From: Pseudomonadota bacterium
GTDB taxonomy: Bacteria > Pseudomonadota > Gammaproteobacteria > Competibacterales > Competibacteraceae
DNA length: 43,861 nucleotides
Direction: 5' to 3'
NCBI GenBank assembly: GCA_030917925.1
Contig: JAUPTV010000181.1
Coordinates: 1-43,861, forward strand
Part shown: one piece after another, positions 30,053 through 33,798 of the stretch
Layout of the letters: each line of letters starts with the position of its first letter
How positions within the stretch are numbered: the first letter of the stretch is position 1
Translations under genes and position numbers: made by a program
The notes under the pieces: generated by a model
The model's database searches: none
What the model was told of the DNA's origin: nothing
Seen by the model: the letters and a program-made list of their open reading frames with translations, nothing else

Positions 30053-30970
30053 TCACACCACCCACATCAACACGGCGGGCAACGTCACCAGCGCCAGCGC
30101 CGTTTCCACCGTGACAATCGCCGCCATTAACGGTGCATCGCCCCCCATTTGCCGCGCCAGAATATAGGACGCGGTGGCGCCGGGTAATGCGGCAAAGGTA
30201 ATCAACACCGCCGTTTCTATCTGCCCTGGTTGCACGATGGCACACAACAGCGCCGCCAGCGCCGGTAAAACCAGCAATTTCAAACCACTGGCGGCGACCA
30301 CCAAGCCGGGACGCGCCAGTCCATCCAGCCGTAAACCTGCGCCCACCGCTAACAGTCCTAACGGCAACGCCGCCCGCGCCAGAATCTCCAGCACCGCCGC
30401 CGAACCCCACGGCAACCCGATCCCGCTCACACTCAAGCCAATCCCGATGCAACAGCCCAAAATCAGCGGATTCATTGCCAACCCGCGCAGTACGACACTG
30501 ACCGTAACGGCTCGATGTGCATGGACGCTCAACACCAACACGCACAGCACGTTAATGCAGGGAATCATAATCGCCATCACCAGCGCCGCCACCGTGCCGC
30601 CTTCCGCGTGAAACACCGCCAGCACGACCGGCAGTCCCACATAGGTATTGAAGCGAATCACGCCCTGATAAACCGAGGTAAAAGCCGGTCCCGCCACTTT
30701 CAGCCAGGGCCGCAATGCATAGGCCAGCGCGGTCATGGTCAGTAACAGTACGACAATAATCAACGCCACCGGTAACACCGCGTAATCGCCCAGTCGGGAT
30801 AGCGCCAGCCGATGCACCAGCAGCGCCGGGAATAGAATGAAATAGGTGAAACGCTCCACGGTCGGCCAGAACGCCTCGCCGGGAAAGCCGAACCGCCGCA
30901 AGCCCAGCCCTAGTAAAATCAGCGCGAAAATCGGTCCCAGTGCGCTGAGAATCAGCGGCAAATTGCTCAT
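30053..30970 (-). CDS. AEC-family (auxin efflux carrier-like) permease
   Basis: The 305-residue product has about ten hydrophobic helices with the AEC pattern: FALILLGLGLRRFGFP near the N-terminus, RFNTYVGLPVVLAVF in the middle, and FAALPGATASYILARQMGGD near the C-terminus. Such proteins export or import small organic anions; the substrate is unknown. The start ATG overlaps the iscB stop as TGATG, and a terminal hairpin of the IscB element lies 18 bases upstream. The original promoter may therefore have been displaced, and expression may depend on read-through from argE or iscB. Confidence 0.9.
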   Translation of the reverse strand: MSNLPLILSALGPIFALILLGLGLRRFGFPGEAFWPTVERFTYFILFPALLVHRLALSRLGDYAVLPVALIIVVLLLTMTALAYALRPWLKVAGPAFTSVYQGVIRFNTYVGLPVVLAVFHAEGGTVAALVMAIMIPCINVLCVLVLSVHAHRAVTVSVVLRGLAMNPLILGCCIGIGLSVSGIGLPWGSAAVLEILARAALPLGLLAVGAGLRLDGLARPGLVVAASGLKLLVLPALAALLCAIVQPGQIETAVLITFAALPGATASYILARQMGGDAPLMAAIVTVETALALVTLPAVLMWVV

Positions 30971-32367
30971 CAGATTTTCCGCGAGAGACCCCGGCCTTCA
31001 GGCCGGGGAGGGATAGCGGGCCGAACGAAGTTCGGCGTCTTTTCAGGCGTGCCGAGTTGCGAATAGCCGTAACCGTCGGCGCGTTGCAGTACTTGGCAAT
31101 AGCGATGGCCGATACCCTGAATCACGCCGTGTGCCGCTTGAAGATTGAAACTGCCCGAGGCGCGAACCGCCACCCGTCCGCTATAGACGCCGACTTTTTT
31201 CCCTTTTGTCACGTCGGCTTTAATCAGGTCGCCGGTCTGGAAGCCTTTAATCCGTTTCTGTCGAGTCAGGTAACCCCGTGGAAAGCCATAGGCATTTAAG
31301 CGGGTCCGCTGGTAACTACCGCGCCCGGTGGCCTTAATCGCTAATGTGGGTTTCTTCCAAGCGCTCAGCGCGTCAAGAGACCCGACACAGGCGGCATCCA
31401 GCGCATGGGTCTTCGGAATCCCTAACCGCATCCGGTTAAACTTGGTCAATCCCCCAGAACCCGTGGTCACGGGTAATCCAGTGGCGTGTAGCGCCTGGAA
31501 TAGCGCCCAGCGGGTTGAATTCACGGCAGCGGCGTCTTTTAAGGGCTTTTTCACCTGCGCCTGAATCCGCGCTAATCGTTTTGGGTCTTTCGCTAAAAAG
31601 ACGTTCAGGTCTTGAGCGCCTTTCTGCTGATTACACGGTCGGCAGGCCAGCGTCAGGTTAGAAACCCGGTCACTGCCGCCTTGGGCTTTGGGGTGAATAT
31701 GGTCAATCTGCAACGGCGTATTCCTGGCTCCACAATAGGCGCATTCCCGGCTCCATTTGTTCAGCAAATACTCACGGGTTTCGTAGCCCGCGAGCGTGCC
31801 TTGTTGATACTCAATACCCGAAATTTCCGGGTTGTCCATCTGCTGTAAATCAAACCGCACGAGTTCTTGCACGATGCCGGTGATCGGCGCTAACCCCGTC
31901 AAGCGCTTCACCCACGCCCAGGTCGTATCCACCCGATGTTGCAAACTCGGCGCAAGCCAGCCGGTCGGTTTCGCCCGATTCAAAAACCGGGGTTTCCGGT
32001 AGCGTAAATTCCCACGCCGCCGCCGACGCCTTTGCCGACGCACGGTCAACCCTTCGCTGATTTGACGACCCCGATGGTTCAGTTCAAACAAACTCAGAAC
32101 ATGAACTGTCGTTCGGACGTCCCCAGTGTCTTCGTCGACCGCTGCGGATTCGCGAACTAAAGCAATTCCCGTGGTTTTACTCCCCGGATCGAGCTTGATC
32201 TTGAGCGGTTGTAAGACGGAATCGTTCACGCAACGGTCGACGAGTCGAATCGAAAAGGGCATCCGCCGATGCACCCGCGCCCGACGTTTTTCCAGCAGTT
32301 TCCGGGCGCGTTTCTCGCTACACGGCATGAGCGGTTTTTTGTTTCGGTCCAGGACAAAAACAGCCAT
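30970..32367 (-). CDS. iscB: RNA-guided nuclease IscB (RRXRR/RuvC-HNH)
   Basis: IscB is the Cas9 ancestor, a nickase/nuclease guided by an omega RNA. The 465-residue product has the PLMP motif at residues 12-15 and the KRRARVHRRMPF RRXRR region. RuvC-I holds Asp60 in KLDPGSKTTGIAL. An arginine-rich bridge helix spans about 100-128 (RRQRRRRRRGN). RuvC-II has Glu168. The HNH domain spans 209-250, with CAYC, DHIHP (Asp222, His223), Asn237 and CRPC. RuvC-III has His321 and Asp324 in HALDA. All catalytic residues I would expect are present, so it looks active. The last residues (RPEGRGLSRKI) read through the right-end hairpin into the permease start. Confidence 0.93.
   Translation of the reverse strand: MAVFVLDRNKKPLMPCSEKRARKLLEKRRARVHRRMPFSIRLVDRCVNDSVLQPLKIKLDPGSKTTGIALVRESAAVDEDTGDVRTTVHVLSLFELNHRGRQISEGLTVRRQRRRRRRGNLRYRKPRFLNRAKPTGWLAPSLQHRVDTTWAWVKRLTGLAPITGIVQELVRFDLQQMDNPEISGIEYQQGTLAGYETREYLLNKWSRECAYCGARNTPLQIDHIHPKAQGGSDRVSNLTLACRPCNQQKGAQDLNVFLAKDPKRLARIQAQVKKPLKDAAAVNSTRWALFQALHATGLPVTTGSGGLTKFNRMRLGIPKTHALDAACVGSLDALSAWKKPTLAIKATGRGSYQRTRLNAYGFPRGYLTRQKRIKGFQTGDLIKADVTKGKKVGVYSGRVAVRASGSFNLQAAHGVIQGIGHRYCQVLQRADGYGYSQLGTPEKTPNFVRPAIPPRPEGRGLSRKI
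30989..31008. repeat. Right-end hairpin of the IscB element
   Basis: CCCCGGCC-TTCA-GGCCGGGG is a perfect eight-pair hairpin with the same TTCA loop as the left end. It lies inside the last codons of iscB. Confidence 0.8.
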
Positions 32368-32640
32368 TTTACTTTTCCAACAATGCGCTTACGCGCCTGG
32401 TGACGGAAGCCTTGCGGCTTCGCTCCCCTCCACAAAGTGGCGTACCGGCATCGCGTCCCGATCCGTTTCGTGCTGACCCTCAGCGTGTCTGCAACCGGGA
32501 CTTTCAGAGCCTGGAACTGAGGAAGCATTCCAGGGTGAGTCTTTAACCTGTACACAACATAGCCCGATGTTCTGGGTTGAGTCTGGTCAATCCAGACTTG
32601 CGGTTTTAGCCACCACAAGCCTCGCCCTTCAGGGTGGGGT
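32368..32640 (-). ncRNA. Predicted omega RNA of the IscB element
   Basis: The 273 bases upstream of iscB contain a series of stem-loops on the minus strand. In order these are the left-end hairpin (32620-32639), a seven-pair stem at 32580-32598, AACAT/ATGTT at 32556-32571, a seven-pair stem at 32510-32534, GAAGCC-GCAA-GGCTTC at 32406-32421, and GCGC-GTAA-GCGC at 32385-32396. The last two have GNRA tetraloops. Position and structure match known omega RNAs. The guide should lie at the 5-prime end, beyond the left-end hairpin, in argE sequence near 32641-32656. An overlapping 149-residue open frame is not a gene. Confidence 0.75.
32620..32639. repeat. Left-end hairpin of the IscB element
   Basis: CCTCGCCC-TTCA-GGGTGGGG folds with eight pairs, two of them G-T. 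The loop and stem length match the right-end hairpin. It contains the argE stop codon on the minus strand. Confidence 0.75.
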
Positions 32641-33798
32641 GATTGACGAAGCCGGCTCGACGCAGAAACACTCAATCAGTCCCTGCAAAATCTCCAGCGT
32701 CGGTGCAATCGCCGCCAGCGGCAGAAACTCATCCGGTTGATGGGCGCAATCCACGCTACCAGGACCCAGAATCACCGTCTCCATCCCCAGCGCGTTCAAA
32801 TACGGCCCTTCAGTGCCAAACCCGACCACGCCCGCCGCTACGCCGGTCAGCGCCTCGGTCGCCCGGACAATGTCCGCCGAAGCGGGGGTTTCCATCGCAT
32901 TGATGCCGGGAAACAGCGGACGGAAACTCAACTGCAACTCACGGTCCGCGACCAGGCGCTGCAACCGCCCCTGCAACTCTTCGCGCAATCCATCCAGCGT
33001 CATCCCCGGCAACGGCCGGATGTCGATATGCAATTCGCAATCGGCGCAAATCCGGTTGGGATTGTCGCCGCCGTGAATATGGCCCAGATTAAGCGTCGGA
33101 AACTCAACTTCAAACAGCGGATTGCGATAACGCGCCTGCAATTCCATCCGCCAGCGCAACAACTCGCCAATGACGTCATGCATCCCCTCCAGCGCATTCA
33201 CCCCCAGCGCCGGATTGCTGGAATGGCCGGAACGCCCCTCCAGCCGAATCGCCTCCATCAGAATGCCCTTGTGCATCCGCACTGGCTTTAACCCGGTCGG
33301 CTCGCCAATCACCGCATGGCGGCCCAGCGGTCCCGTCAGCGCCTGTGCGCCGCACATACTGCTTTCTTCATCCGCTGTCGCCAGAATCACCAGGGGTTGG
33401 CGGAAATCGCTGGCGTTAAAGGCTTGGGCGGCTGCCAGCGCCAGCGCCAGAAACGACTTCATATCCGCCGAACCCAGCCCATACAGCCGTTCATTAGCAA
33501 TCACACCGCCAAAGGGATCAAACTGCCAGCGGCCAGCATCGAACGGCACCGTATCGGTATGACCGGCCAACACCAGCCCCCCCGACCCGCTGCCCAGCGT
33601 CGCAATCAGGTTGGCCTTGCCGGGATAACCGGGTAATGGCTCAATGCGCACCGCGAATCCGGCGTCATCCAGCCAGTTGGCCAGTAAATCAATGACCGGC
33701 CGATTACTCTGATCAAATTGCGGCGATACGCTGCTGACCGAAGGGGTGGCGATGAGTTGGCGAAGGCGTTCCAAAAGCAGGGGCGAAAGGGTCGGCAT
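32629..33798 (-). CDS. argE: Acetylornithine deacetylase ArgE (M20 family)
   Basis: ArgE removes the acetyl group from N-acetylornithine in arginine synthesis. The 389-residue metallo-hydrolase has AGHTDTVPFD (metal His/Asp), YGLGSADMKSF, ATADEESSMCGA (catalytic and metal Glu), and the dimerisation region IRLEGRSGHSSNPALGVNAL. A GTEGPYLNALGMETVILGPG segment supports ArgE over other M20 enzymes. I use the ATG at 33798, not the TTG at 33816. The last codons (ASSITPP) and the stop run into the left-end hairpin of the IscB element, so the native C-terminus may have been altered by a few residues. argA is also nearby, at 39.6 kb. Confidence 0.9.
   Translation of the reverse strand: MPTLSPLLLERLRQLIATPSVSSVSPQFDQSNRPVIDLLANWLDDAGFAVRIEPLPGYPGKANLIATLGSGSGGLVLAGHTDTVPFDAGRWQFDPFGGVIANERLYGLGSADMKSFLALALAAAQAFNASDFRQPLVILATADEESSMCGAQALTGPLGRHAVIGEPTGLKPVRMHKGILMEAIRLEGRSGHSSNPALGVNALEGMHDVIGELLRWRMELQARYRNPLFEVEFPTLNLGHIHGGDNPNRICADCELHIDIRPLPGMTLDGLREELQGRLQRLVADRELQLSFRPLFPGINAMETPASADIVRATEALTGVAAGVVGFGTEGPYLNALGMETVILGPGSVDCAHQPDEFLPLAAIAPTLEILQGLIECFCVEPASSITPP

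What the first reader, a model, noticed from the sequence alone, without database searches (positions are those of the whole stretch)
30970..32645. Apparently complete IscB-omega-RNA locus in a non-autonomous element
A 465-residue IscB with all RuvC and HNH residues in place is preceded by a 270-base region full of stem-loops, including two GNRA tetraloop hairpins, and both ends carry matching TTCA-loop hairpins. This is the full layout of an IS200/IS605-type IscB unit with no transposase. Nothing in the protein looks decayed, so it may be an active RNA-guided nuclease.
Basis: partly seen in the sequence, partly recalled or inferred. Interest (0 to 1): 0.85.

Follow-up and report, generated by a model that had tools for sequence, protein, structure and literature searches.

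The report
IscB transposon seated at start codons
This is a real gene for an RNA-guided DNA-cutting enzyme (IscB) with its guide RNA, in a small mobile element; the element has many gene-less relatives in the same genome, and it and its kin usually sit exactly in front of the start codon of ordinary genes.

Summary
The IscB is full length and meets NCBI's IscB model (449.6 bits, cut-off 175). All RuvC/HNH residues are present, and dN/dS against its sister copy is about 0.09. The upstream region matches Rfam's HEARO/omega-RNA family (94.3 bits, cut-off 83). An uninterrupted relative puts the element at 30971-32647 (minus strand, 1677 bp), inserted without target duplication before ATGA. "Nothing decayed" is slightly too strong: the last ~20 residues are frameshifted against the sisters, and two near-invariant omega-RNA pairs are broken.

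The genome holds 3 IscB copies, 15 HEARO RNAs (mostly in gene-less 364-422 bp MITEs), intact tnpA and tnpB elements with related ends, and a TnpB-type MITE family with the same end. Less expected is where they sit: the ATGA is usually the true start codon of the flanking gene (bioD, sucC, mdh, leuB, gltX, corC), in 16 of 20 IscB-type copies here and 44 of 56 ends in relatives, against about 33% for non-coding ATGA sites. The guide flank often keeps the gene's stranded Shine-Dalgarno sequence. Most likely: a non-autonomous IS200/IS605-type element moved in trans by TnpA, with IscB re-cutting guide+ATGA donor joints. Cleavage, mobility and expression are untested.

The parts
30971..32647 (-). 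Whole element (1677 bp), GTCAATCACCCC...GCGGAAAATCTG
   Evidence: Limits from the empty orthologous site in G005 and from alignment of sister copies
32648..32663 (-). Predicted guide: 16 nt of host sequence left of the element, GCGTCGAGCCGGCTTC
   Evidence: Position by analogy with characterised IscB omega-RNAs; guide + ATGA contiguous in the empty site; guide length is inferred
32417..32647 (-). HEARO / omega-RNA
   Evidence: Rfam RF02033, 94.3 bits, full model; compensatory changes in 25 of 34 consensus pairs
32625..32634 (.). End hairpin (CCC-TGAA-GGG; TTCA loop on the + strand) at the omega-RNA side
   Evidence: Sequence
32406..32421 (-). GNRA (GCAA) hairpin
   Evidence: Sequence
32385..32396 (-). 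GNRA (GUAA) hairpin
   Evidence: Sequence
30970..32367 (-). iscB gene, 465 aa; stop codon completed by the flanking A
   Evidence: NF040563 449.6 bits, catalytic residues, dN/dS 0.085 against the C207 copy
30989..31008 (.). End hairpin CCCCGGCC-TGAA-GGCCGGGG (TTCA loop on the + strand) at the target-motif side
   Evidence: Sequence; shared by about 38 ends in the genome
30971..30982 (-). Element end GCGGAAAATCTG, weak SD-like stretch before ATG
   Evidence: Anti-SD -3.5 kcal/mol, not above shuffles for this copy; ends as a group are above shuffles
30967..30970 (-). Target motif / predicted TAM ATGA, also the start codon (ATG) of the downstream gene
   Evidence: Empty site in G005 and ATGA next to sister copies
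30053..30970 (-). Downstream host gene: AEC-type membrane transport protein
   Evidence: PF03547, 48.9 bits
32629..33816 (-). Upstream host gene: M20 peptidase family; its last codons now come from the element
   Evidence: PF01546, 101.9 bits; ancestral end rebuilt from the flanks ends EPAS*, present end EPASSITPP*

Best explanation
A non-autonomous IS200/IS605-type IscB transposon, probably moved in trans by a Y1 TnpA encoded by an IS605 cousin in the same genome. It inserts without target duplication so that the target ATGA (TCAT on the other strand) lies directly at the IscB 3' end. The host sequence left of the element becomes the roughly 16-nt guide of the omega-RNA. After excision the donor joint is guide+ATGA, which IscB would cut so that repair restores the element; the same IscB could use the omega-RNAs of the MITEs in trans. 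Because ATGA occurs at start codons and stop/start overlaps, most surviving copies sit exactly between a gene's Shine-Dalgarno sequence and its start codon. There the element end often carries a replacement SD (GGAG, 6-7 nt before ATG), so the gene can still be translated. Shown: element limits, family, seamless insertion, start-codon placement, conservation of protein and RNA. Inferred: mobilisation by TnpA, RNA expression, cleavage, restoration, the RBS role, and survivorship as the cause of the start-codon bias.
For: IscB and HEARO models over their curated cut-offs; dN/dS 0.06-0.15 among relatives; compensatory RNA changes. Seamless empty sites at five loci in relatives: AEC, corC, sucC, bioD, mdh, and G005 has no match to this end at all. 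3 IscB, 15 HEARO, about 38 ends and 3 Y1 tnpA genes in the genome. ATGA opens an ORF of at least 100 aa in 16 of 20 IscB-type copies (p 2e-5 against 33% for ATGA sites outside predicted genes) and in 44 of 56 ends in relatives (p 3e-12). HMMs align from the first residues for sucC, mdh, bioD, leuB, gltX and others. Left flanks bind anti-SD better than all 200 shuffle means. ATGA fits the NWRR core of published IscB TAMs (PMC13180657). Donor-joint restoration is proposed for TnpB in PMC8612924.
Against: No expression, cleavage or mobility data. The window copy has a C-terminal frameshift and two broken omega-RNA pairs. No tnpA shares both ends with the IscB element; end similarity to the C38, C69 and C180 elements is suggestive only. 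The SD in the element end is weak in the window copy and absent in some lineages.
Confidence: 0.75

Rival explanations
1. A fossil: an IscB element that spread long ago; the window copy is no longer active and the RNA-only copies are relics.
For: C-terminal frameshift and two broken omega-RNA pairs in the window copy; IscB-type copies in the genome are only about 76-88% alike over the compared stretches.
Against: Open reading frame, all catalytic residues, dN/dS 0.085 against the C207 copy; other HEARO copies score up to 126 bits; G005 lacks the elements, so insertions postdate that split.
Confidence: 0.2
2. The start-codon placement is due to targeting, not survival: TnpA or an accessory factor prefers start-codon regions beyond the ATGA motif.
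For: The excess stays large even against non-coding ATGA sites only.
Against: TnpB-type copies with the same end and motif, which look younger and more alike, are less biased (7 of 15 against 16 of 20; Fisher p 0.07); known IS200/IS605 targets are 4-5 nt only (PMC8612924).
Confidence: 0.25
3. A domesticated IscB that regulates or protects host genes, with the MITE RNAs as its guides.
For: Many trans omega-RNAs with guides that cover translation starts, and a constrained protein.
Against: Guides match the flank they sit next to, as expected of any insertion; the catalytic residues are kept; the iscB locus is not shared in place by the G005 relative.
Confidence: 0.05

Closest known systems
IscB OMEGA nucleases (OgeuIscB and relatives)
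   Same: PLMP, split RuvC, arginine-rich stretch, HNH, 5' omega-RNA; ATGA fits the NWRR TAM core reported for other IscBs.
   Different: Sequence is distant from OgeuIscB (phmmer 94 bits); TAM not measured; many RNA-only copies in the genome.
HEARO RNA (RF02033), Weinberg et al. 2009
   Same: Full-length match over the gathering score. From memory, HEARO elements were described next to ATGA or GTGA; the paper is not held, so this is unverified.
   Different: Here the ATGA is shown to be the host start codon at most sites, with empty sites and stranded SD sequences.
ISDra2 / IS608-type TnpA-TnpB elements (peel, paste and copy)
   Same: Seamless insertion next to a short motif, end hairpins, guide taken from the flank, donor joint = motif + guide (PMC8612924).
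   Different: The nuclease is IscB with the guide at the 5' side and the motif 3' of the target; no tnpA in the element.
Stand-alone trans-acting omega-RNAs of IscB systems (from memory, Altae-Tran et al. 2021; not held)
   Same: RNA-only loci beside few iscB genes.
   Different: Here they are bounded MITEs with the same end and target motif as the iscB element, seated on start codons.

Membership tests
IscB nuclease | Match to the IscB family model | tested here: met
   NF040563 449.6 bits, cut-off 175
IscB nuclease | PLMP, RuvC-I/II/III and HNH catalytic residues | tested here: met
IscB nuclease | Omega-RNA encoded directly upstream | tested here: met
   RF02033 at 32647-32417
IscB nuclease | RNA-guided DNA cleavage next to a TAM | not testable with these tools
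   Needs protein; only the motif ATGA is predicted
HEARO / omega-RNA | Score over the Rfam gathering threshold, full model | tested here: met
   94.3 against 83 bits, positions 1-211
HEARO / omega-RNA | Conserved structure with compensatory changes | tested here: met
   25 of 34 pairs in 23 RNAs; two pairs broken in this copy
IS200/IS605-type element | Insertion without target duplication next to a fixed 4-5 nt motif | tested here: met
   Five empty sites, motif ATGA
IS200/IS605-type element | Imperfect palindromes near both ends | tested here: met
IS200/IS605-type element | Y1 transposase in the element | tested here: not met
   None in the element; three elsewhere in the genome. Filed as a non-autonomous derivative only.
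IS200/IS605-type element | Mobilised by TnpA | not testable with these tools
   Needs an excision assay

The most novel reading that the evidence does not exclude
IscB/omega-RNA elements and their RNA-only derivatives are adapted to a 'start-codon niche': they insert between Shine-Dalgarno sequence and start codon, take the host gene's SD region as guide, replace the SD with their own end, and are carried as 5' leaders of housekeeping genes, whose transcription supplies the guide RNA.
Probability: 0.45. Interest if true: 0.7.

Novelty: new member of a known kind. Interest (0 to 1): 0.5.

Why it matters
The locus is a ready natural system for testing IscB biology: one genome with constrained IscB genes, more than a dozen natural guides, a candidate TnpA and empty sites in close relatives. 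Its start-codon placement would explain how a selfish element can sit in front of essential genes without killing the host, and gives a direct prediction (ATGA) for the TAM.

Tried and rejected
Chance similarity: rejected by curated cut-offs for protein and RNA. Single-sequence folding of the 280-nt leader is not significant (z -1.39) and was not used as evidence. A general RBS role of the element end: rejected as universal, because some lineages lack any SD there, although ends on average bind anti-SD better than shuffles. A clear difference between IscB-type and TnpB-type copies in start-codon bias: only suggestive (p 0.07). Literature search for start-codon insertion of IscB elements in the held library found nothing; several key papers (Weinberg 2009, Altae-Tran 2021) are not held. 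Three cmscan calls on relatives' ends were meant to sort element types and sorted few, because many fetched stretches were too short or held other element types.

Full report
WHAT IS THERE. The ORF at 30970-32367 (minus strand, 465 aa) is an IscB: NCBIfam NF040563 'RNA-guided endonuclease IscB' at 449.6 bits (cut-off 175), Pfam RRXRR 230.8 bits and HNH 51.3 bits, with solved IscBs as its closest structures by sequence. D60, E168, D222/H223 and H321/D324 sit where RuvC-I, RuvC-II, HNH and RuvC-III residues are expected. Upstream, 32647-32417 matches Rfam HEARO (the omega-RNA of IscB) over the whole model at 94.3 bits (gathering score 83). The two GNRA hairpins lie at its end and just after it, and TTCA-loop hairpins lie at both ends. 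The folding energy of the leader alone is not unusual (z -1.39), but among 23 related RNAs 25 of 34 consensus pairs show compensatory changes.

LIMITS OF THE ELEMENT. In a same-genus genome (G005) the two neighbouring genes, an M20 peptidase and an AEC-type transporter, adjoin directly with an ATGA stop/start overlap. Comparison puts the element at 30971-32647 (1677 bp), inserted between ...CCGGCTTC and ATGAGC, with no target duplication. The ancestral junction of the window genome would also have been an ATGA overlap (...EPAS*). Now the element gives the upstream gene a new end (...EPASSITPP*), and the last A of IscB's stop codon comes from the flank.

STATE OF THE COPY. Against its sister on contig C207, dN/dS is 0.085, and 0.06-0.15 among all relatives compared, so the protein has been under strong constraint. 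The window copy is not pristine. Its last 20 or so residues are out of frame relative to the sisters by one base. Pairs 94/279 and 138/271 of the omega-RNA alignment are broken in it although nearly all others keep them. Its HEARO score is the second lowest of the 13 copies above threshold.

THE FAMILY IN THE GENOME. The genome (4.2 Mb, 299 contigs) holds three IscB copies, one cut by a contig end, 15 HEARO RNAs (13 above threshold) and about 38 copies of the motif-side end. Most HEARO copies with both ends are MITEs of 364-422 bp without a gene. A second MITE family of roughly 330-350 bp shares the motif-side end; one longer copy (L018, C47) carries what reads as tnpB on the other strand, and the family model PF07282 finds tnpB on that same contig and several more in the genome. 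Three intact Y1 tnpA genes are present; those on C69 and C180 lie beside divergent tnpB genes, with related ends. On C38 an omega-RNA MITE lies in what remains of a tnpB next to tnpA. So 'no transposase' is right for the element but not for the genome.

START CODONS. The four bases after the element are ATGA in nearly every copy (that figure is partly selected for, since the query ended in ATGA). What is not selected for is where this ATGA lies. In 16 of 20 IscB-type copies it opens an ORF of at least 100 aa. The background, from 435 kb of the same genome, is 22% for all ATGA sites and 33% for those not inside predicted genes, giving p = 4e-8 and 2e-5. The genes include sucC, mdh, bioD, leuB, gltX, an NAD+ synthase and corC, and profile HMMs align from the first residues, so the ATG is the true start. 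In relatives of the family 44 of 56 ends do the same (p 3e-12 against 33%). More distant IscB loci in Thiomicrospira, Methyloprofundus, an Anaerolineae bacterium and a deltaproteobacterium end in the same way. The left flanks, which would be the guides, often keep a Shine-Dalgarno sequence at the right distance for the displaced ATG (AAAGGAG before mdh, GAGGGAG before bioD, GAGGGGG before sucC); their mean anti-SD energy in this genome beats all 200 shuffle means. Empty sites at AEC, corC, sucC, bioD and mdh show leader and ATGA contiguous. G005, which supplied an empty site for all five, has no match to the end at all, so these are probably original, not excised, sites.

HOW IT MOST LIKELY WORKS. 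By analogy with TnpB elements (PMC8612924), TnpA excises the element as a single strand, the donor joint is guide+ATGA, and the nuclease cuts it so that repair restores the element. ATGA fits the NWRR core of published IscB TAMs (PMC13180657). IscB could serve the RNA-only copies in trans. I think most insertions elsewhere are lost, while those at start codons survive because the element end can replace the SD: ends bind anti-SD better than shuffles, GGAG lies 6-7 nt before ATG where present, and strong SDs are commoner in copies on start codons (28 of 66 against 5 of 25, p 0.054). This is not universal: one group of ends reads GCGCAACATCTG, with no SD.

LIMITS. ORF length is a proxy for genes, and the null rests on a crude gene finder; IscB-type and TnpB-type copies were partly sorted by eye; copies are not fully independent; some Competibacteraceae loci occur in both sets of relatives. 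From memory, HEARO was first described with ATGA/GTGA next to it, which I could not verify, so the motif may be known even if the start-codon argument is not in the library searched. For the same reason the novelty is rated as a new member of a known kind.

Noticed in passing
L019, L029, L064, L069 (G000 contigs C219, C24, C105, C137): A second MITE family of roughly 330-350 bp, apparently derived from TnpB elements, shares the IscB element's motif-side end and the ATGA/TCAT target but has a different far end (TTGACNTCC...).
   Followed up: partly
L061 1-1100 (G000 C38): An omega-RNA MITE inserted in what remains of a tnpB gene, directly beside an intact Y1 tnpA; its predicted guide comes from the tnpA upstream region.
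   Followed up: partly
L032 and L033 (G000 C69, C180): Two tnpA elements with a similar end are followed by ATAA instead of ATGA.
   Followed up: no
L210 and L238 (G034 C22, G036 C127): Ends of this kind sit in front of what looks like the same gene (both proteins share ...VALALAEDVGSGDLTAALIPE...) in two genomes of different genera.
   Followed up: no
L117-L128: Methanosarcina and Methanobrevibacter genomes hold distant IscBs (28-34% identity), at least eight contigs in one Methanosarcina MAG; not analysed for insertion sites.
   Followed up: no
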